Source: Geothrix sp. (lineage in GTDB: Bacteria > Acidobacteriota > Holophagae > Holophagales > Holophagaceae). Taken from it: 64,000 nt of DNA. Below the pieces are notes generated by a model. It did no database searches and had not been told where the DNA came from. It saw only the letters and a program-made list of their open reading frames with translations. Numbering within the stretch: position 1 is the first letter of the stretch; every line of letters begins with the position of its first letter. Position numbers and translations under genes: made by a program. Below are positions 44,883 through 52,248 of this stretch, piece by piece. The stretch spans positions 1 to 64,000 of the forward strand of contig JAVBYJ010000074.1 of NCBI GenBank assembly GCA_030824075.1, in the 5' to 3' direction.

Positions 44883-45392
44883 ATGTCTCGGACTCTGTTC
44901 CTGCTGTTGCTTCCGACCCTGGTGCTCCAGGCCCAGGACTCGGCCATCCCGGGCGCTGTGGAGGTGCGCTCTGGCGTCTTTGTCCTGCGCGGGGCACCCA
45001 ACGAGGGGACCTGCGCGGCGATGAAGAAGCAGCGCATCACCCATGTGGTGGACTTGCGGCGAGACGGCGAGCCCAGCTTGAACTGTGAATCGGAATCCAT
45101 CCGGATGCAGGAAATCGGGGTTCAGTACCAACGCTACGCCATCGGGAAGACCCCGCCCGCTGGGGACTTCGACTTCCTCCGGAGCTTCCTGAAGGATTTG
45201 CCGAGGGGATCCCGGGTGCTGCTCCACTGCAATAACGGCAACCGGGCTGCGGCGGCTGTCCTGCCCTGGCTGGTGCTGGACAAGGGGATGCCCTTGGAGG
45301 AAGCCATGAGGATCAGCAAGGCGGCAGGGCTGCAGCTCCCCGAGACCGAGGAGGCCGTGCGCCGCTACCTCGGCAGCAAGGGACGGGCCTAG
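44883..45392 (+). CDS. Secreted phosphatase-like protein (DUF442/dual-specificity type)
   Basis: The 169-residue product has a signal peptide (MSRTLFLLLLPTLVLQAQ). The fold resembles small tyrosine-phosphatase-like proteins: VFVLRGAPNEGTCAAMKKQR, THVVDLRRDGEP, and the loop VLLHCNNGNRAAAAVLPWL. That loop is HC-x4-R, as in the beta-lactamase-hydrolase-like DUF442 group, not HC-x5-R of classical tyrosine phosphatases. GGAGG precedes the ATG at 44883. It follows hemN after a 140-base gap in which I see no clear signal. The stop shares CTAG with the convergent membrane-protein gene. Confidence 0.65.
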   Translation: MSRTLFLLLLPTLVLQAQDSAIPGAVEVRSGVFVLRGAPNEGTCAAMKKQRITHVVDLRRDGEPSLNCESESIRMQEIGVQYQRYAIGKTPPAGDFDFLRSFLKDLPRGSRVLLHCNNGNRAAAAVLPWLVLDKGMPLEEAMRISKAAGLQLPETEEAVRRYLGSKGRA

Positions 45393-46381
45393 AGCTTCAG
45401 CGGTGACAGAACCATCCAGATTCCCACGATGAGGGTGAAGATCAGGGCGAGGACGAGGGCGCTCCAGGCGAGGCGTGCCTGCATCCGCGGCAGGGCCTCC
45501 GAGAGGCTCTTTCGCGCGCGGAAGGGGGCAAGGGCCCCCACCCCCAGGCCCAGAATCGCCCCGCCGAGCAGGGTTCCGTAAATGGGATAGCCTACGAACC
45601 CATACTCCCGCTGGAGCAGGCAGAAGGGGCAGTGGTGGGTGGGCAATTCATATATGTAGAGACAAAAGAAGGAGACGAGCGAAGTCACGGACACAAGCAG
45701 GAAGGCGAGGCTGAGGACCGAGAACACCCCAGCACCGCGGCGGGTGCGCAGGAGCAGGACCCCAGCCGCCACGAAGGCTCCCAGGGTGATCCAGAAGGCC
45801 GGCTGCATGATCCGTGGGGGCAGCCCGGCCAGCTCGGCGACAAGGCCTTCGCGGCCCTGGCCGAAGAGGCTTCCACAGCAGGAGGTCATCACATCGGCCT
45901 TCAATCCCGCAAGGTAGCTCGCCTGGAGCCAGGTCTCAGCCAGGACCATGGGCACCAGAATGAGGAGCAGCACGTATTTGGGTCGGATCAGAGGGTAGTC
46001 GTGCCCCTGGGTATCGGCCCGATGGAGGATCAGCCAGACTCCGGCGACCAGGCAGGTGGCGATCTTCGCCAGGAGGGTGGGATAACCGAAGGCATTGACC
46101 GCCAGGGAGCCTGCTGCGCACATGGCGCCCACGAACTGAGTGTGCAGACCCTCCGCCGTGAAGATGAAGAGGAACAGCGACAGAATCTGGATCACCAGGG
46201 CGTTCGCCACCAGGGTGGACACGAGGTAGGTGCGGCGCTCCAAGTCCAGCTGCACTTCGCTCCCACTCTGGAGGTTCCACCCGCGGAGAATTCGGAGGCC
46301 CTGCCAGCCCGCGGCCAGCAGCAGCAGGCTCACGAGCCCAGAAGCGAGCAGGAGTGCGAGGACGCCCGGGTGTTGGATCAC
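45389..46381 (-). CDS. Eight-to-nine-TM membrane protein with a DsbB-like CPFC...QR motif
   Basis: The 330-residue protein has about eight hydrophobic segments. Near the C-terminus HHCPFCLLQREYGFVGYPIY (C251, C254) recalls the CxxC...QR segment of DsbB. An earlier pair is C168/C169 in DVMTSCCGSLFGQG. Thiol or metal chemistry at the membrane is possible but not shown. It is the last gene of the nosL operon and overlaps the ABC ATPase gene by ATGA, so a role in moving copper or maturing a cofactor with NosL is a reasonable guess. No family name can be given. Confidence 0.6.
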   Translation of the reverse strand: MIQHPGVLALLLASGLVSLLLLAAGWQGLRILRGWNLQSGSEVQLDLERRTYLVSTLVANALVIQILSLFLFIFTAEGLHTQFVGAMCAAGSLAVNAFGYPTLLAKIATCLVAGVWLILHRADTQGHDYPLIRPKYVLLLILVPMVLAETWLQASYLAGLKADVMTSCCGSLFGQGREGLVAELAGLPPRIMQPAFWITLGAFVAAGVLLLRTRRGAGVFSVLSLAFLLVSVTSLVSFFCLYIYELPTHHCPFCLLQREYGFVGYPIYGTLLGGAILGLGVGALAPFRARKSLSEALPRMQARLAWSALVLALIFTLIVGIWMVLSPLKL

Positions 46382-47097
46382 GAGCCCGCCACGATCCGGC
46401 CGTCACGCATTTCAACCACGACATCAGCCAGCGGAGAACCATGCACGATGGGATCGTGGCTCGTGATGAGGAGGGTCTTGCCCGCGGCCTTGAACTGGCC
46501 CATGAGCTCCATGAAGTCCTCCGAGAGCCGGGAATCGAGGTGGGCTGTGGGTTCGTCGGCGATGATCACGGCTGGTTCGTTGATGAGGGCTCGGGCAATG
46601 GCCACGCGCTGGGCCTCGCCGCCCGAGAGGCGGTCCACCGAGGCGTGCAGGTGTCGCAGCAAACCGAGTTCCCCCAAGCGCTCGATGGCCCGGGCTTCGA
46701 CCCAGGCGTGATCCTCACCGGTGGGATAGGTGGGAAGCATCACGTTTTCCAGAACGGAGATGCCGCGCACCAGATTGAACTGCTGGAAGATGAAGCCGAA
46801 GGTGCGCCGCCGGATGGCCGTGAGAAAGCGTTCGGGCAAGCTGGTGATCTCCAGGGCGTCGCCCTCCGTGAGTTGGGGCAGGGTGCCGGCAGGAAGGCCG
46901 TGCAGGTGGATCCGGCCCGAGGTGGGCCGCGCCATGCAGCCGATCAGGGTGAGCAGCGTGGTCTTTCCTGAGCCGCTGGGGCCCTTGAGGACCGTGACCT
47001 TGCCCGCGGGAATCCGGAGGCTGACATCATCCACGGCGGTGAAAGGGGTGGCGAGGCCGGCCTGGTAGGTCTTCACGACCCGCGAGAGTTCGATCAT
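46378..47097 (-). CDS. MacB/LolD-type ABC transporter ATPase
   Basis: The 239-residue ATPase starts MIELSRVVKTYQAGLATPFT two bases after the permease stop. Walker A GPSGSGKTTLL, Q-loop FIFQQFNLVRGISVLENVML, signature LSGGEAQRVAIARAL, Walker B AVIIADEPTAHLD and H-loop ITSHDP are intact. It belongs to the LolD/MacB/FtsE group that works with FtsX-type permeases, as encoded next to it. A longer in-frame extension upstream overlaps the permease gene and is not used. Confidence 0.9.
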   Translation of the reverse strand: MIELSRVVKTYQAGLATPFTAVDDVSLRIPAGKVTVLKGPSGSGKTTLLTLIGCMARPTSGRIHLHGLPAGTLPQLTEGDALEITSLPERFLTAIRRRTFGFIFQQFNLVRGISVLENVMLPTYPTGEDHAWVEARAIERLGELGLLRHLHASVDRLSGGEAQRVAIARALINEPAVIIADEPTAHLDSRLSEDFMELMGQFKAAGKTLLITSHDPIVHGSPLADVVVEMRDGRIVAGS

Positions 47098-47099
47098 TG

Positions 47100-48233
47100 T
47101 CAGGACCTCATAGCCGCGTCGGGGTCCACGGTGGCCGCACGCCAGATAGGCACCAGGGTGGCGGCGGTATAGGGCAGCACGGTGAGGAAGAACAGCACGG
47201 CGAGCTGATAGCCGTCCAGGGCAGGCAGCAGGCGGTAGCGGGGGAAGAGCACGGACCAACCCTTGAGGGCGTGTTCGAAGAGCGATGCCGAAAAGAAGAA
47301 GACATGGACATAGGCCAGAAGGACACCGCCCAGAAAGGCCGTCAACGAGACCACAGAACCCTCCCAGAATTTCAGGAGCAGGACGTCGGCGCTTTCCCAT
47401 CCGATGGACTTGAGGATGCCGACTTCCTTGCGCTCCTCCGCGGATAGGCCGGTGGCCTTATCCCAGGCGAAAATGATGAAGGAGAGGATCGCCGAGCTCA
47501 GCACCACCACCATGAGTCCGCCCCGCCAGTCGAAGATGGCTTCGTAGGTGCGGAGGATCTCGGATTTCAGGATGGGCCGCGCATCCGGGAACTGTTCCAC
47601 GATCTTGGCGGCGATGGTGGGCAACTCGCGCGGGTTTCCGGCCTGGACCGCCAGGTCGGTGGCAAGGCCTTCCGAAAGATTGAAGAGGGACCGGACGTCC
47701 TGTGGCGACATCAGGATGAGGTCAGAGGACACAAGCTCGGACTCCTCTGGCAGGACCTTCTGGATGCTGAAGAGCATGGGGCCCGCATAGCCGCGCAGGC
47801 TGATCATGTCGCCTTCCTTCACACGCATGCTCCGGGCGACGCCCTGGCCGACCCATACGGATTCGACGGCCAGGGCCGTGTCGTCGGTCGCCATGACGGT
47901 GAGGTTCCCGCCGTAGACCGGGTCGTAATAGTACCCCCAGAGCCTCGGCTGAACCGCTTCCACCCCGCGGATGGCGCGGATGGTTTCGGCCTGGGCGACT
48001 GGCATGGGATCGTGGCGGCCGGCCACCATGCGTTGCACGACCATGTCGGGAGCCTGGACGAGGAGTTCGCGGGCCTCGCGCTTGAGCGCCTGCACGAAGA
48101 AGATCAGGGAGGCGATCACGAAGACGACCAGCGTGTAGACGCAGATCAAGGCCAGGTTCCGCCCCTTCCGCCTCAACAGCGAGGAGAGGGCGAAATCAAG
48201 GATGTTGCGGTACCGCTGGACGGAGGGGCGCAT
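47100..48233 (-). CDS. FtsX/MacB-type ABC permease
   Basis: From MRPSVQRYRNILDFALSSLL at 48233 the product has 377 residues. An N-terminal membrane helix (LALICVYTLVVFVIASLIFF) is followed by a large periplasmic MacB_PCD-like region (about 50-240). Three C-terminal helices lie around VVVLSSAILSFIIFAWDKA and LAVLFFLTVLPYTAATLVP, with ERKEVGILKSIGWESADVLL between them, the coupling segment of FtsX permeases. It is a mechanotransmission-type or export system with the next ATPase. The context is nosL, so the substrate may concern copper sites. Confidence 0.85.
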   Translation of the reverse strand: MRPSVQRYRNILDFALSSLLRRKGRNLALICVYTLVVFVIASLIFFVQALKREARELLVQAPDMVVQRMVAGRHDPMPVAQAETIRAIRGVEAVQPRLWGYYYDPVYGGNLTVMATDDTALAVESVWVGQGVARSMRVKEGDMISLRGYAGPMLFSIQKVLPEESELVSSDLILMSPQDVRSLFNLSEGLATDLAVQAGNPRELPTIAAKIVEQFPDARPILKSEILRTYEAIFDWRGGLMVVVLSSAILSFIIFAWDKATGLSAEERKEVGILKSIGWESADVLLLKFWEGSVVSLTAFLGGVLLAYVHVFFFSASLFEHALKGWSVLFPRYRLLPALDGYQLAVLFFLTVLPYTAATLVPIWRAATVDPDAAMRS

Positions 48234-48522
48234 GGGGACTCGGGAAGGTCGGTGGGGCCACGAGGGAACCGGACGGGAAATGATCCAGGCCCATGGGGTG
48301 GTCCTGGAAAGCCGCGTGGCGGTCGGCCATGGCGGGATGGCGGGTGTAGCGGGCTTCGGTGAAAAGGCAGAGGTCGGTGAGGCCGAGGCTCCGTACCAAG
48401 GCAGCGCTGGATTGGCGCTGCTGCGCCGCGCGGCCCTCCTGGGCTCTCGCATGAAGCAGCATGGCCACGAACAGCGCCGATTGAACGCCGATCAGGGACA
48501 AGCAGAGGGTGGATTTGCGCAT
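48196..48522 (-). CDS. Small single-helix protein in the nosL operon
   Basis: The 108-residue product MRKSTLCLSLIGVQSALFVA has one N-terminal hydrophobic helix and then a His- and Pro-rich, probably periplasmic tail (TRHPAMADRHAAFQDHPMGL). The histidines could bind metal, but this is speculation. It overlaps the permease start by 38 bases and follows nosL after 42 bases. Overlap and signal-like N-terminus favour a real gene. I recognise no family. Confidence 0.55.
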   Translation of the reverse strand: MRKSTLCLSLIGVQSALFVAMLLHARAQEGRAAQQRQSSAALVRSLGLTDLCLFTEARYTRHPAMADRHAAFQDHPMGLDHFPSGSLVAPPTFPSPHAPLRPAVPQHP

Positions 48523-48564
48523 GAGCGGACGGGCTTTCCGGAATGGTCCCTTAGAGGATAGCCG

Positions 48565-49053
48565 TCACTCCAGGCTTTTCATGGTTTGGGAGGTGATCTC
48601 CTGGAAGGGCAGGACCCTCTGCCCTCGATGGTCCTTGAGGAAATCCCTCGCGCTGGCCTCGGTGGCAAAGGGCACCAGCTCCTTGCCCATGGGCCCCATG
48701 ACATCGCTTCCGAGCACATAGAACGCCTTCTGGCCGTCGATGTGCTTCAGGCCGTAGTAGTCCTTCACCTGGACCGAGAGGATGTCCGAGGAATTCCGTT
48801 TCGCGGCGTAGTGTTTCAGGTCGAGGAGGTAGGTGAAGAGGTCTTTGGGCCCATCAAACCAGGCCTGGGCGTTGTCCTTGAAGGTGACCACAGCGGCCCA
48901 GTCTGGGAAGTTCGCCACATACATTCCGCACACGGCGCAGTTGCCCTTGGGGAGGGGACCCTTCGGAGCTGCGGACGGCTTGGGTCCAGCGGAAAACAGG
49001 GAAACCGCGCCCGTCAGGAGGGCGGGAAGGAGCAGGCGTGAAGATCGGTTCAT
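48565..49053 (-). CDS. nosL: NosL-family copper-binding protein
   Basis: The 162-residue protein has a signal peptide (LLPALLTGAVSLFSAG) and the NosL core. KGNCAVCGMYVANFPDW carries C39, C42 and M44 near the Cu(I) site, then AAVVTFKDNAQAWFDGPKDL, LGSDVMGPMGKELVPFATE and the end FQEITSQTM. In nos clusters NosL delivers Cu(I) to N2O reductase. No nosZ, nosD or nosF lies here, and the lipobox cysteine of E. coli-type NosL is absent. It heads a five-gene minus-strand operon. Confidence 0.82.
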   Translation of the reverse strand: MNRSSRLLLPALLTGAVSLFSAGPKPSAAPKGPLPKGNCAVCGMYVANFPDWAAVVTFKDNAQAWFDGPKDLFTYLLDLKHYAAKRNSSDILSVQVKDYYGLKHIDGQKAFYVLGSDVMGPMGKELVPFATEASARDFLKDHRGQRVLPFQEITSQTMKSLE

Positions 49054-49176
49054 CAGGAGTCCCTACTGGCAAGAGTGCAACGATATCCATTTGTTTGTGA
49101 CGTCGGGGGTTGAATCGGATACCTGCCCGGATATGCGGCAGTCCAGGAAAGTCTCGCGGGCGCTCGCCGGCCCTCC

Positions 49177-49195
49177 AATAGGGGTTTCCCCTATT
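49177..49195. promoter_or_regulatory. Perfect dyad in the nosL/response-regulator intergenic region
   Basis: AATAGGGG and CCCCTATT flank three T bases. It sits in the 245-base divergent gap between nosL and the NarL-type regulator gene, about 100 bases from each start. A regulator binding site is the simplest reading. The half-sites are not an obvious NarL heptamer. Nothing else in the gap is clear besides GGGTGAAAACCC just downstream. Confidence 0.4.
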
Positions 49196-49298
49196 AGAAG
49201 GGGGTGAAAACCCGTATTTTCTCCCCCGAAAGCCCTAGGCAGGAGGGGCCGGTCGCCGCTAGCCTCTGGAAACACGATCGCGTGGATCAAGGACAGAC

Positions 49299-49961
49299 AT
49301 GGCCCCCGAACAGAGGCACCGATTGGTCATCGCCGAGGACCACACCATCCTTAGGGAGGGACTGAAAGCCCTGCTGGCCTCCCGGCCGGATCTGGAGGTG
49401 GTGGGGGAGGCTTCGGACGGGCGTGAGGCCGTGCGCTGCGCGGAGGAATTCCAGCCCGACCTGATGATGCTGGATCTCTCCATGCCCAGGTCCAACGGAC
49501 TGGAGGCGCTGAAAGAGATCAAGCGGGTCAGTCCTCTGACCAAGGTGCTGGTACTCACGGTCCACAAGACCGAGGACTACGTGTTTACTGCTCTCCAGGC
49601 GGGTGCGGACGGATATGTGCTCAAGGATTCCTCTTCCACAGAATTGATGCTGGCGGTCCGCAGCGTCTTGAATGGGGAACGGTACCTCGCTCCAGCCATC
49701 GCTTCCACCGTGGTTTCGGGCTACCTGGGTGCCAATGACTCGTCCTTTCTGAGGCCCAGTTTCGATGATCTGTCCACCCGCGAGCGGGAGGTGCTGAAAC
49801 TCATCGCTGAAGGCTATCGAACCAAGGACATCGCAGAGTACCTTTGCATCAGCCCCAAGACCGTGGAGAAGCACCGGGCCAACCTGATGGACCGGCTCAA
49901 GCTGCACACGGTATCCGCCCTGACGACCTATGCCATCGAGAAGGGCCTGGTCACGAAGTAG
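49299..49961 (+). CDS. NarL/FixJ-family response regulator
   Basis: The 220-residue regulator has a receiver (RLVIAEDHTILREGLKALLA; phosphoacceptor Asp in LMMLDLSMPRSNGLEAL; Lys in GYVLKDSS). A LuxR-type helix-turn-helix follows (LSTREREVLKLIAEGYRTKD, ISPKTVEKHRANLMDRL). It is the likely partner of the NarX-like kinase encoded convergently; the two genes overlap by 11 bases at their 3' ends. AAGGA precedes the ATG. The targets are unknown; divergent nosL is a candidate. Confidence 0.9.
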   Translation: MAPEQRHRLVIAEDHTILREGLKALLASRPDLEVVGEASDGREAVRCAEEFQPDLMMLDLSMPRSNGLEALKEIKRVSPLTKVLVLTVHKTEDYVFTALQAGADGYVLKDSSSTELMLAVRSVLNGERYLAPAIASTVVSGYLGANDSSFLRPSFDDLSTREREVLKLIAEGYRTKDIAEYLCISPKTVEKHRANLMDRLKLHTVSALTTYAIEKGLVTK

Positions 49962-51774
49962 CATCTTCGGGCAGGGACCAGCGGGCGATGATCATGGTGC
50001 CCTCGCCGGGGGAGGACGTCAGGATCAGGGAGCCGCCGAACAGTTCCGCGCGTTCGCGCATGGAGACGAGCCCGAAGCCCCCACCCGATGAATGTCTCAG
50101 CGGCCCTCCTGGAATGAATCCAATCCCGTTGTCTCCCACCAGCAACTGCAGGTCCCCAAGCACCTGTCGCAGAGCCACCGTGATCCGCGTCGCCTGGCTG
50201 TATTTGGCAGCATTGTTCATGGCTTCCTGCAGGATCCGAAAGATGTTCGTTTTGAGCATGTCGGGGACCTCGAATTCCTCAACCTGGATCAATCGCTCCA
50301 CCTCCATGTGGGGGTAGGTGATCTCGAATTCCCGGGTGAACCAGGCGATGGTGGCGAGCAGCCCTAGATCATCCAAGGTCGTGGGGCGGAGAGCCATCGA
50401 GATGCGACGGACTTCCTCTACAGCCCCCTGAATCACGGGGACCACCGTGCGCAGCGTCTGGCCCTGCTTGTCCTCGCCGTATTCGATCTGCTCATCGATG
50501 GCCCGTTCCACGATGAACTTCACCGCGCTGAGGGACTGCCCGATGCTGTCATGGAGCTCCCGGGCGACCCGCTGTCGTTCACTCTCCTGGGCAGACATGA
50601 GCCGTGCCGAGAGTTTATGAAGCGCCTCCCGGGAGTCCAGAACCTCCTGCTCGGCCTTTTTGCGTTCCGTGATGTCCTGAATGTTTCCGAGCAGAGCTGG
50701 TTCACCGCCGTAACGGATGAGCGCCGTTCTTCCACTGATCCAGCGGGTTTCCCCCTTGGCGTGGAGGATCCGGCACTCATAGTCCTGCGTGGCGCCCAAT
50801 CCGGCGAGCCTGCTTCGCCAGAGTTCCCGGACCGTGGGCCAGTCCGTGGGATGGACCATTTCGGCCACATCCAGGCGGGCAAGGTCGTTTTGGGAACGGC
50901 CCACCATCTGGAAGAACCGTTGATTGCCGAATTCGAGCCGACCATTCCGATAGATGAAGATCCCCGTGGGTGAGTTCTCGACGACAGTGCTGTATTTCTC
51001 CTCGGAATCGCGGATGGCGGCTTCCGCGGACTTGCGGTCCGTGATGTCGATGAAGGTGTATACGAACCCGGCGACGGAACCGTCCGCCCGCCAGATCGGC
51101 GAGCAGGTCAGGTAGGCCGGGAAGGACGAGCCATCGCGACGGACCGCTTTCACTTCCCCGTTCCATCCCTTCACGGCTCCGAACCCGGAGAGGCCGCTGC
51201 TGGCGGCCTCTGACGTGAATCCGGTCACCTTGGCGAGGGTCTGGTTTCGGACCTCATCCTCGGTCCAACCGAACATCCATTCCGCGAACCGGTTCCAGTA
51301 AAGGATGACGCCGCCTTTTCCGGTGGCCACCACGCCCTGCTGGACCACCGCCAGGATCCGCGCCTGGAACTGGATCCGGGCATCCGCCTTGCTCCGCTCC
51401 AGCGTCTCGTTCTGGATGCGCTCTGCTGCATCCTGGCGGATGAATTCGTTGGTGGCCTGCATCTCTTTCAGGGCCCGGTCGGATTCGGCCTTCTCGACGA
51501 GGTTGCGAACCATGGGCTTGATGAGCAGGTAGTAGATGGATGGGAAGCAGACCAGGATGAGGGTTCCGGAATCCACGAACGCCATGGTCCAGTGGTCGTC
51601 CAGGAATACCGGCTCCAGAAGCACCATGATGGTGAGTTCCGTGAGGACGATGATCACGCAGACGAGCAGGAAGGACCGGAGCAGTTCCCGAGATCGAGAC
51701 GCGGCCATCGGACTTCCCTCCGGCCGAACCGGCTGGATGGGGATCGGAAGCTTCTCTCGGCGGGGGGCGGTCAC
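49951..51774 (-). CDS. NarX-type sensor histidine kinase with two PAS domains
   Basis: The 607-residue kinase starts at GTG 51774 (GAGGTG upstream). It has two N-terminal TM helices (about 30-85: LLVCVIIVLTELTIMVLLEP, MAFVDSGTLILVCFPSIYYL) and a coiled linker. Two PAS domains follow, each ending in a PAC segment (FVYTFIDITDRKSAEAAI and LLGNIQDITERKKAEQEV). A HisKA_3 core (SERQRVARELHDSIGQSLSA, His in ELHDSIGQ) and an ATPase (QEAMNNAAKYS, VGDNGIGF, GGFGLVSMRERAEL) finish it. No distinctive ligand residues identify the signal. Confidence 0.88.
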   Translation of the reverse strand: MTAPRREKLPIPIQPVRPEGSPMAASRSRELLRSFLLVCVIIVLTELTIMVLLEPVFLDDHWTMAFVDSGTLILVCFPSIYYLLIKPMVRNLVEKAESDRALKEMQATNEFIRQDAAERIQNETLERSKADARIQFQARILAVVQQGVVATGKGGVILYWNRFAEWMFGWTEDEVRNQTLAKVTGFTSEAASSGLSGFGAVKGWNGEVKAVRRDGSSFPAYLTCSPIWRADGSVAGFVYTFIDITDRKSAEAAIRDSEEKYSTVVENSPTGIFIYRNGRLEFGNQRFFQMVGRSQNDLARLDVAEMVHPTDWPTVRELWRSRLAGLGATQDYECRILHAKGETRWISGRTALIRYGGEPALLGNIQDITERKKAEQEVLDSREALHKLSARLMSAQESERQRVARELHDSIGQSLSAVKFIVERAIDEQIEYGEDKQGQTLRTVVPVIQGAVEEVRRISMALRPTTLDDLGLLATIAWFTREFEITYPHMEVERLIQVEEFEVPDMLKTNIFRILQEAMNNAAKYSQATRITVALRQVLGDLQLLVGDNGIGFIPGGPLRHSSGGGFGLVSMRERAELFGGSLILTSSPGEGTMIIARWSLPEDATS

Positions 51775-51804
51775 GAAGCACCTCGGATGGCGGGGACCCG
51801 AGGG

Positions 51805-52248
51805 CTACCGAATATCGATGAGTTCCAGTTCGAACAGAAGGATGGCTCCGGAGGGGATGTCGTTGCCCGCCTCAACGGGGGAGTAGCCGAGGCTGGGAGG
51901 CACACGGAGCAGCCGCTTTCCACCTTTCTTCATGGTCGCAAGGCCCTCATCCCAGCCCTTGATGACCCGGCCAACCCCGAGCGGGAAGGTGGCGGGGTAC
52001 CCGCGCTTGCGCGTGTCCAGAAAGAGGCGCCCCTTGCCGCCCTTCTCCTCGATCCAGCCCAGGGCCTCGATCACGCAGGTCTGGCCCAGCTGCGGGGAGC
52101 CACCGGTCCCGAGGGTGATATCTGTGGAACCGAGGCCGCTCGGGGACGTGGATAAGACGGGCTGACGAACCGCCGAAGCTTCTGGCGCCTTGCATCCGAA
52201 GGGCGCAGCGAGAAGCAGGATGGATAGGCAGGCGATGGTGGCACGCAC
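51805..52248 (-). CDS. FKBP-type peptidyl-prolyl isomerase, exported
   Basis: The 147-residue protein has a signal-like N-terminus with a cysteine at 19 (ILLLAAPFGCKAP), only weakly a lipobox. One FKBP domain follows: CVIEALGWIEEKGGKGRLFL, FPLGVGRVIKGWDEGLATMK, KRLLRVPPSLGYSP, IPSGAILLFELELID. The VIKGWDEG and LLFELEL motifs are family-typical. It lies 30 bases before the kinase gene on the same strand and may be cotranscribed with it. Periplasmic folding helper is the natural role. Confidence 0.8.
   Translation of the reverse strand: MRATIACLSILLLAAPFGCKAPEASAVRQPVLSTSPSGLGSTDITLGTGGSPQLGQTCVIEALGWIEEKGGKGRLFLDTRKRGYPATFPLGVGRVIKGWDEGLATMKKGGKRLLRVPPSLGYSPVEAGNDIPSGAILLFELELIDIR

What the first reader, a model, noticed from the sequence alone, without database searches (positions are those of the whole stretch)
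45389..49053. NosL-ABC-DsbB-like membrane protein operon without nitrous oxide reductase genes
Seen: nosL, a small His-rich one-helix protein, an FtsX-type permease, a LolD-type ATPase and an eight-helix protein with CPFCLLQRE, tightly spaced. Known: NosL supplies Cu(I) to NosZ in nos clusters. No nosZ, nosD or nosF is here. Inference: a self-contained periplasmic metal-delivery or thiol-redox module for another enzyme, maybe a cytochrome or a copper oxidase.
Basis: partly seen in the sequence, partly recalled or inferred. Interest (0 to 1): 0.5.

Follow-up and report, generated by a model that had tools for sequence, protein, structure and literature searches.

The report
Copper-loading gene block, probably for oxidases
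A conserved block of membrane and periplasmic genes, at first sight a stray piece of nitrous-oxide respiration, looks like a machine that handles copper, and among the Geothrix genomes examined it is found only in those that also carry giant copper oxidases of a type tied elsewhere to iron and manganese chemistry.

Summary
The five genes are real: NosL, a small one-helix protein, an FtsX-type permease, a LolD/FtsE-type ATPase and an eight-helix protein (here VK8) form a tight operon (45389-49053, minus). The genome has no nosZ. The set recurs in Holophagaceae, Nitrospirota, Gammaproteobacteria and a Geobacter bin. In Geothrix it belongs to an eight-gene block, with a response regulator, a histidine kinase and an FKBP isomerase, that is present or absent as a unit. 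VK8 matches no Pfam or NCBIfam family; its invariant Met/Cys/His lie in loops on one side, and its apparent CxxC is not conserved, so "DsbB-like" fails. A diverged sister set lies near nosZ-like genes in three Nitrospirota contigs. Among 21 Geothrix genomes a giant multicopper oxidase was found in 7 of 7 with the block and 0 of 14 without; haem-copper oxidases do not follow it. One Geothrix block contains such an oxidase, and one Nitrospirota cluster joins the set to two oxidases, SCO1 and a cytochrome c. In Nitrospirota overall, oxidase presence does not follow the set. Best reading: a NosL-centred, ATP-driven Cu(I)-delivery system serving OmpB/MofA-type oxidases here and other cuproenzymes elsewhere. 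Copper binding and client are inferred.

The parts
48565..49053 (-). NosL, Cu(I) chaperone family; CAVCGM (CXXCXM) motif and GPMG; no Cys before the motif, so no lipobox
   Evidence: PF05573 101 bits; PDB NosL chains 7og7, 7osf, 7znq E 1.6e-8 to 2.3e-7; alignment; sequence
48196..48522 (-). small one-helix protein (108 aa) with conserved TDLxLFTEARYTRHPxxAD...AFQDHPxxLxHFPSGS; overlaps FtsX start
   Evidence: beside VK8 in 49 of 55 chosen free-standing loci; no Pfam match; alignments
47100..48233 (-). FtsX/MacB-type ABC permease (type VII ABC)
   Evidence: PF02687 27 bits; TIGR02212 LolCE E 3.5e-9, below its cut-off
46378..47097 (-). LolD/FtsE-type ABC ATPase
   Evidence: PF00005 101 bits; NCBIfam order FtsE, MacB, DevA, LolD
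45389..46381 (-). VK8: eight-helix membrane protein of no named family; Met87, Cys88, Cys168, Cys169, His249 in all 62 homologues aligned, Cys251 in 60, position 254 Cys or Asp
49299..49961 (+). LuxR-type response regulator, divergent from nosL
   Evidence: PF00072, PF00196; near the operon in Geothrix loci and G284
49951..51774 (-). PAS-PAS histidine kinase
   Evidence: match at E<=1e-100 in the 7 block-bearing Geothrix and G284, in none of the other 19 Holophagaceae tested
51805..52248 (-). FKBP-type peptidyl-prolyl isomerase, possible lipoprotein
   Evidence: PF00254 77 bits; beside HK-RR in G244 and G284; no match at the empty sites
49177..49195 (.). perfect inverted repeat AATAGGGGAAACCCCTATT in the RR-nosL intergenic region, possible RR site
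   Evidence: only loosely kept in close relatives

Best explanation
The operon encodes an ATP-driven periplasmic Cu(I)-delivery machine. NosL binds Cu(I) through CxxCxM; the FtsX-type ABC transporter moves periplasmic parts by ATP hydrolysis rather than carrying copper across the membrane; VK8 is a membrane copper-binding or docking subunit with soft ligands (Met87, Cys88, Cys168, Cys169, His249, Cys251) on the periplasmic face; the small protein is an accessory subunit. The HK-RR pair controls the set and the FKBP isomerase helps clients fold. In Geothrix the main client is a secreted giant multicopper oxidase of the OmpB/MofA kind, usually encoded elsewhere, with SCO1 and a cytochrome c. Shown: gene content, conservation, the eight-gene presence/absence unit, co-occurrence with the oxidase in Geothrix, physical linkage in a few genomes, no NosZ found. 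Inferred: copper binding by this NosL and by VK8, mechanical action of the ABC pair, regulation by HK-RR, the client.
For: NosL family match and CXXCXM motif (meaning of the motif from PMC6530538, passages). Giant MCO open frames by PF07731 in 7/7 block-bearing Geothrix and in G284, 0/14 other Geothrix (Fisher p 8.6e-6); copper motifs checked by pattern: four of four in G000, three of four in G027, G053, G190, G205 and G284; the G244 protein read in full; G076 not read. The block changes state at least 5 times on a hemN-hemE-hemL tree. In G244 a giant MCO lies between RR and NosL. In G398 one strand carries NosL, FtsX, ABC, VK8, a receiver protein, MCO, a 251-aa protein that I read as FKBP-like, an SCO1-like protein, a cytochrome c and a giant MCO. 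In G362 two MCOs precede NosL. SCO1 and the cytochrome c lie beside the set in G530 and G443. He et al. 2017 (PMC5566968, passages) describe OmpB/MofA clusters with a MofC cytochrome and a MofB isomerase or SCO1. PCuAC-family genes lie near the set in G298, G303 and G328 (Pfam on one member). No haem-copper oxidase type tracks the block.
Against: In Nitrospirota the link to MCO is not general: 15 of 29 set-bearing and 11 of 22 set-lacking genomes tested have a PF07731 match (p 1.0), and set-lacking G411, G464, G506 and G521 have giant MCO-like open frames. G097 has a diverged set but no PF07731 match and no HK. In Geothrix the MCO is usually not next to the set (in single-contig G027 about 1 Mb away). 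Three of four gammaproteobacterial genomes with the set (G299, G300, G302; not G301) also have nosZ elsewhere. The giant MCOs score only 23-31 bits with PF07731, and PF07732 misses them, so a diverged one could be missed in a block-lacking genome. The tree has weak inner support, and genomes of one genus are not independent. No copper binding or activity was tested.
Confidence: 0.58

Rival explanations
1. The set assembles copper sites of haem-copper oxidases (CuA, CuB), like SCO1 and PCuAC.
For: SCO1- or PCuAC-family genes lie near the set in several Nitrospirota genomes (G530, G443, G429, G398; G298, G303, G328); G000 has four COX1 matches.
Against: The high-scoring COX1 form (482-500 bits, which I take as aa3) is in 20 of 21 Geothrix, with or without the block; the 311-318-bit form is in 3 of 7 with and 2 of 14 without; the 784-aa-type form in 4 of 7 and 10 of 14.
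Confidence: 0.12
2. It is a remnant or orphan of a nos system, kept for an N2O reductase gained and lost.
For: A sister clade lies near nosZ-like genes in G303, G520 and G429; nosZ-like genes of 460 bits or more are in 10 of 42 set-bearing and 4 of 203 set-lacking Nitrospirota (p 4.9e-6).
Against: No NosZ over the cut-off in any of 27 Holophagaceae genomes, single-contig ones included; the genes are intact and conserved; in G299 and G300 the nosZ contig carries its own NosL-like gene apart from the set.
Confidence: 0.08
3. A periplasmic thiol-redox module, VK8 acting like DsbB or VKOR.
For: Cys residues in loops on one side; a thioredoxin-like (TlpA-like by eye) family in 14 of 59 loci clustered and a DsbD_2 family in 3 (Pfam on one DsbD_2 member).
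Against: The CxxC is C-x-x-D in 20 of 62 homologues; no DsbB or VKOR match at E<=1 among 17 members; Cys/Asp swaps suit metal ligation better (inference).
Confidence: 0.1
4. A copper-stress (detoxification or sensing) system rather than enzyme maturation.
For: Linked two-component system; multicopper oxidases can also serve copper tolerance (general knowledge).
Against: The co-occurring Geothrix oxidases are giant forms with repeat domains; in the gene lists that I read by eye I noticed no copper efflux pump beside the set, but I did not search for one.
Confidence: 0.12

Closest known systems
NosDFYL copper-insertion machinery of N2O reductase
   Same: NosL plus an ABC transporter; the PDB chains that match our NosL are named NosL or copper-binding lipoprotein NosL (that some belong to a NosDFY-NosL complex is recalled)
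   Different: permease is FtsX/MacB type, ATPase LolD/FtsE type; VK8 and the small protein are extra; no NosZ found in Holophagaceae
OmpB/MofA multicopper oxidase clusters (Geobacter, Leptothrix)
   Same: giant secreted MCO with SCO1 and a cytochrome c, and an FKBP isomerase in the block (MofB is described as an isomerase, PMC5566968)
   Different: no NosL-ABC-VK8 set appears in the passages that I read of that paper; in Geothrix the oxidase and the set mostly lie apart
CutF-CutO (Rhodobacter)
   Same: a periplasmic factor needed for multicopper oxidase maturation (PMC8456105, passages)
   Different: a single small CXXXC protein; no ABC transporter or NosL in the mechanism described in the passages read
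MacB/LolCDE/FtsEX type VII ABC systems
   Same: FtsX-type permease and matching ATPase
   Different: paired with NosL and VK8; scores well below the named NCBIfam equivalogs

Membership tests
NosL (PF05573) | profile match with C-x-M Cu(I) motif | tested here: met
   101 bits; CAVCGM conserved
nos system (NosZ maturation) | NosZ encoded in the genome | tested here: not met
   no match over the cut-off in G000 or the other 26 Holophagaceae genomes; assembly of G000 94.6% complete
nos system (NosZ maturation) | NosD, NosF, NosY partners | not tested
   not searched; none recognised beside the operon
type VII ABC (MacB/LolCDE/FtsEX) | FtsX-domain permease with cognate ATPase | tested here: met
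   PF02687 27 bits over a cut-off of 25.5; PF00005 101 bits
DsbB/VKOR thiol oxidoreductases | conserved catalytic CxxC | tested here: not met
   position 254 is Cys in 42 and Asp in 20 of 62 homologues
DsbB/VKOR thiol oxidoreductases | DsbB/VKOR fold | tested here: inconclusive
   no Foldseek match at E<=0.001; VIA-align rows are helical bundles
OmpB/MofA-type oxidase (the proposed client) | multicopper oxidase copper motifs in a large secreted protein | tested here: met
   motifs; PF07731; CotA laccase 1gsk E 3e-44; secretion not tested
OmpB/MofA-type oxidase (the proposed client) | cluster with SCO1 and MofC-like cytochrome c | tested here: met
   by reading of L240, L241 and L247; Pfam SCO1 on the L144 member and Peripla_BP_6 with a weak cytochrome c match on the L196 member
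OmpB/MofA-type oxidase (the proposed client) | direct sequence homology to OmpB, MofA, MofB, MofC | not tested
   no OmpB or MofABC sequence was fetched

The most novel reading that the evidence does not exclude
A previously undescribed ATP-driven copper-loading machine, built on NosL, an FtsX-type ABC transporter and a new family of copper-binding eight-helix membrane proteins, that matures different large cuproenzymes in different bacteria: giant OmpB/MofA-type metal-cycling oxidases in Geothrix and some Nitrospirota, NosZ-like reductases in others.
Probability: 0.45. Interest if true: 0.8.

Novelty: new variant of a known kind. Interest (0 to 1): 0.6.

Why it matters
NosL has been described as a dedicated copper chaperone for N2O reductase (title and passages of PMC6530538). 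If the same chaperone, with another ABC transporter, loads secreted multicopper oxidases, then finding nosL need not signal N2O reduction, and the maturation of oxidases linked to extracellular iron and manganese chemistry gains a testable pathway, including a new membrane protein family (VK8) with a fixed set of soft metal ligands.

Tried and rejected
VK8 as DsbB or VKOR: rejected on the non-conserved CxxC and lack of profile match. VK8 fold: Foldseek and VIA-align against the PDB gave no convincing relative; VIA rows such as CcmF or cytochrome oxidase chains are four-helix similarities within the range the tool warns of. VK8 as a tandem duplication: hhalign of the two halves gave probability 1%. 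Haem-copper oxidases as client: no type follows the block. PF07732 as MCO probe: misses the giant oxidases (E 0.029 on the G244 protein), so its near absence in Geothrix alone would have misled. Conserved RR operator upstream of nosL: the inverted repeat at 49177-49195 is not kept as a perfect repeat elsewhere. Association of MCO with the set in Nitrospirota: not found. Among the same 29 set-bearing Nitrospirota, nosZ-like genes occur only in genomes without a PF07731 match (5 of 14 against 0 of 15, p 0.017), but by the VK8 tree close relatives are among the five, so I do not lean on it.

Rows dropped before counts: I used one or two loci per genome, picked from those fetched, 55 free-standing and 7 sister-clade; some loci lack genes because the contig or the stretch ends (L142, L099, L028), while L154 and L161 lack all four partners nearby. 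In one search I gave 29 of 34 Nitrospirota with a free-standing set (not G303, G435, G463, G538, and G461, which is only a fragment) and 22 of 203 without a set, because of the 80-handle limit. Eight further Nitrospirota have weak partial NosZ matches (79-138 bits; three with the set, five without) that I left out of the NosZ-like count.
Full report
What is there. The five genes of the finding are real and lie as described on the minus strand: NosL 48565-49053, a 108-aa one-helix protein 48196-48522, an FtsX-type permease 47100-48233, an ABC ATPase 46378-47097 and an eight-helix protein 45389-46381 that I call VK8. Pfam identifies NosL (101 bits), FtsX (27 bits, just over its cut-off) and the ATPase (101 bits); VK8 and the small protein match nothing, and NCBIfam names none of the five above its cut-offs. 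The organism is Geothrix-like: the closest named loci are Geothrix sp. and Holophagaceae bins at 81-88% identity in VK8, and G190, called same genus by the tool, has the set on a contig of the same length (40513) as JAUXSE010000054.1, Geothrix sp.. I therefore call genus g1 Geothrix.

No N2O reductase found. The assembly (94.6% complete) has one NosL and no NosZ; the only TIGR04246 match is a Cu-A stretch near a COX1 match. Of 27 Holophagaceae genomes (21 Geothrix, six others), none passes the NosZ cut-off, while NosL is present in the nine that have VK8 and in none of the other 18. The single-contig genomes G027, G205 and G097 are among the nine, so missing contigs do not explain the absence.

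Conservation. VK8 is found in 11 of 297 genomes of the window's phylum, in 42 of 245 of the phylum of G303, which I take as Nitrospirota from its record title, and in Gammaproteobacteria and a Geobacter bin. In 55 free-standing loci that I selected, all with VK8, the ATPase is beside it in 53, FtsX in 52, the small protein in 49 and NosL in 43, often in the order NosL, small protein, FtsX, ATPase, VK8. Some loci carry a second NosL-like gene. In 59 loci clustered, thioredoxin-like (TlpA-like by eye) proteins occur in 14, a DsbD_2 family in three, an SCO1 family in three and a PCuAC family in four, two of these from one genome (Pfam on one member each of the last three).

Relation to nos. In the Nitrospirota genome G303 a diverged copy (two NosL, a small protein, FtsX, ATPase, VK8) lies downstream of a NosZ-like gene with NosR/H-, NosF- and NosY-like genes (these names by eye; NosL, NosZ). 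Seven diverged VK8 copies form one clade (support 1.0). Of ten genomes with such a copy (three seen only as fragments), three have it on the same contig as a NosZ-like gene of 480-488 bits (G303, G520, G429), 12 to 17 kb apart; these NosZ-like genes lie below the curated cut-off of 625. Over all VK8, NosZ-like genes of at least 460 bits are in 10 of 42 set-bearing and 4 of 203 set-lacking Nitrospirota (p 4.9e-6; not corrected for kinship). So the set is kin to nos machinery. For the free-standing clade I saw no such cluster; in G299, G300 and G302 nosZ is on a different contig from the set, and in G299 and G300 that contig carries its own NosL-like gene.

The unit is larger. The histidine kinase at 49951-51774 has a match at E<=1e-100 in the seven block-bearing Geothrix and in G284 of another genus, and in none of the other 19 Holophagaceae tested (G097, which has a diverged set, is among the 19). 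In G244 and G284 the set lies at other genomic places but still near FKBP, HK and RR. In 12 of the 14 block-lacking Geothrix the phosphatase-like and acyl-CoA-synthetase-like genes (names partly by eye) that flank the window's block both lie at the hemN site, and VK8, NosL, RR, HK and FKBP give no match there; in G040 and G268 the second flank was not found in the stretch. The block is thus an eight-gene presence/absence unit, 45389-52248.

VK8. Across 62 homologues Gly85, Met87, Cys88, Gly91, Trp116, Cys168, Cys169 and His249 never vary; Cys251 is kept in 60; position 254 is Cys in 42 and Asp in 20. The model (pLDDT 88) puts these Met/Cys/His in the stretches after helices 2, 4 and 6, all on one side; the other side has somewhat more Arg/Lys, mainly in the loops after helices 5 and 7, which suggests, weakly, that the Cys side is periplasmic. 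That is a good set of Cu(I) ligands and a poor DsbB.

The client. The G244 block contains, between RR and NosL, a 1757-aa protein with the multicopper oxidase motifs and carboxypeptidase-type repeats, similar to CotA laccase (E 3e-44). PF07731 finds at least one giant open frame (1479-1774 aa) in all seven block-bearing Geothrix, and in G284, but none in 14 block-lacking Geothrix, 13 of which have no match at all; G220 has an ordinary 522-aa one (Fisher p 8.6e-6). Six of these giants besides that of G244 were checked for motifs; those of G076 were not. Block-bearing Geothrix are scattered on a hemN-hemE-hemL tree (at least five changes; shuffled labels mean 6.0, 26% of shuffles five or fewer), so one shared ancestor does not explain the match, although inner support is weak and the shared insertion site suggests repeated loss. 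In G027 and G205 the giant oxidase lies with an SCO1-like protein and a cytochrome c fused to a binding-protein-like domain, next to what I read as rpoC. In the Nitrospirota genome G398 one strand carries NosL, FtsX, ATPase, VK8, a receiver protein, a 664-aa oxidase, a 251-aa protein that I read as FKBP-like, SCO1, the cytochrome and a 2095-aa oxidase (names by eye; the small protein is found there too). In G362 two oxidases directly precede NosL. In G530 and G443 SCO1 and the cytochrome lie beside the set. On longer contigs a giant oxidase lies some 25-30 kb from the set in G528 and G426. He et al. 2017 (PMC5566968; [quoted passage not shown] the kit here is the same by gene type. I did not compare sequences with OmpB or MofABC themselves.

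Against. In Nitrospirota MCO presence does not follow the set (15 of 29 against 11 of 22, p 1.0), and four set-lacking genomes have giant MCO-like open frames. So the oxidase is at most one client among several, or can be loaded otherwise. Haem-copper oxidases do not follow the block in Geothrix. G097 has a diverged set with neither HK nor MCO match.

Mechanism proposed. Bennett et al. 2019 (PMC6530538; [quoted passage not shown] Type VII ABC systems move periplasmic domains by ATP hydrolysis (recalled). I therefore propose that NosL takes up Cu(I), docks on FtsX and VK8, and that ATP turnover drives hand-over, through VK8's soft ligands, to the unfolded or secreted oxidase with help of FKBP and SCO1. 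Copper binding, hand-over and client are inferred.

Print. Searches for NosL with FtsX/LolD, with SCO1/PCuAC/cbb3, with Geothrix/Nitrospirota names, with multicopper oxidase/MofA/OmpB/Geobacter, with manganese oxidation, for MofABC, for Geothrix with multicopper oxidase, and for NosDFY (capped listings only, apart from passages of PMC6530538, PMC5566968 and PMC8456105) showed no title or abstract start that joins NosL to an FtsX-type transporter or to OmpB/MofA oxidases. Subscription papers are mostly not held, so this is weak evidence of novelty.

Noticed in passing
L106 13109-16845 and L107 11451-15006 (Nitrospirota): A second FtsX-type permease (with a QCCD-like motif) and ATPase next to a PCuAC copper chaperone and a beta-propeller-like protein: perhaps a second, related copper-handling ABC system.
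   Followed up: partly
G303:C23 (L092 3713-5572): NosZ-like proteins of 460-488 bits, below the curated cut-off of 625, in 14 of 245 Nitrospirota: a possible divergent NosZ clade.
   Followed up: no
window 49177-49195: Perfect inverted repeat AATAGGGGAAACCCCTATT between the response regulator and nosL; only loosely kept in close relatives.
   Followed up: partly
G411, G464, G506, G521: Set-lacking Nitrospirota with giant oxidase-like open frames of 1302-1613 aa, which raises the question of how those are loaded with copper.
   Followed up: no
L240 1970-13368: Giant oxidase of G027 flanked by two further large Ig- or Kelch-type proteins; the like is seen in G244 (L196) and, in part, G205 and G284.
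   Followed up: no
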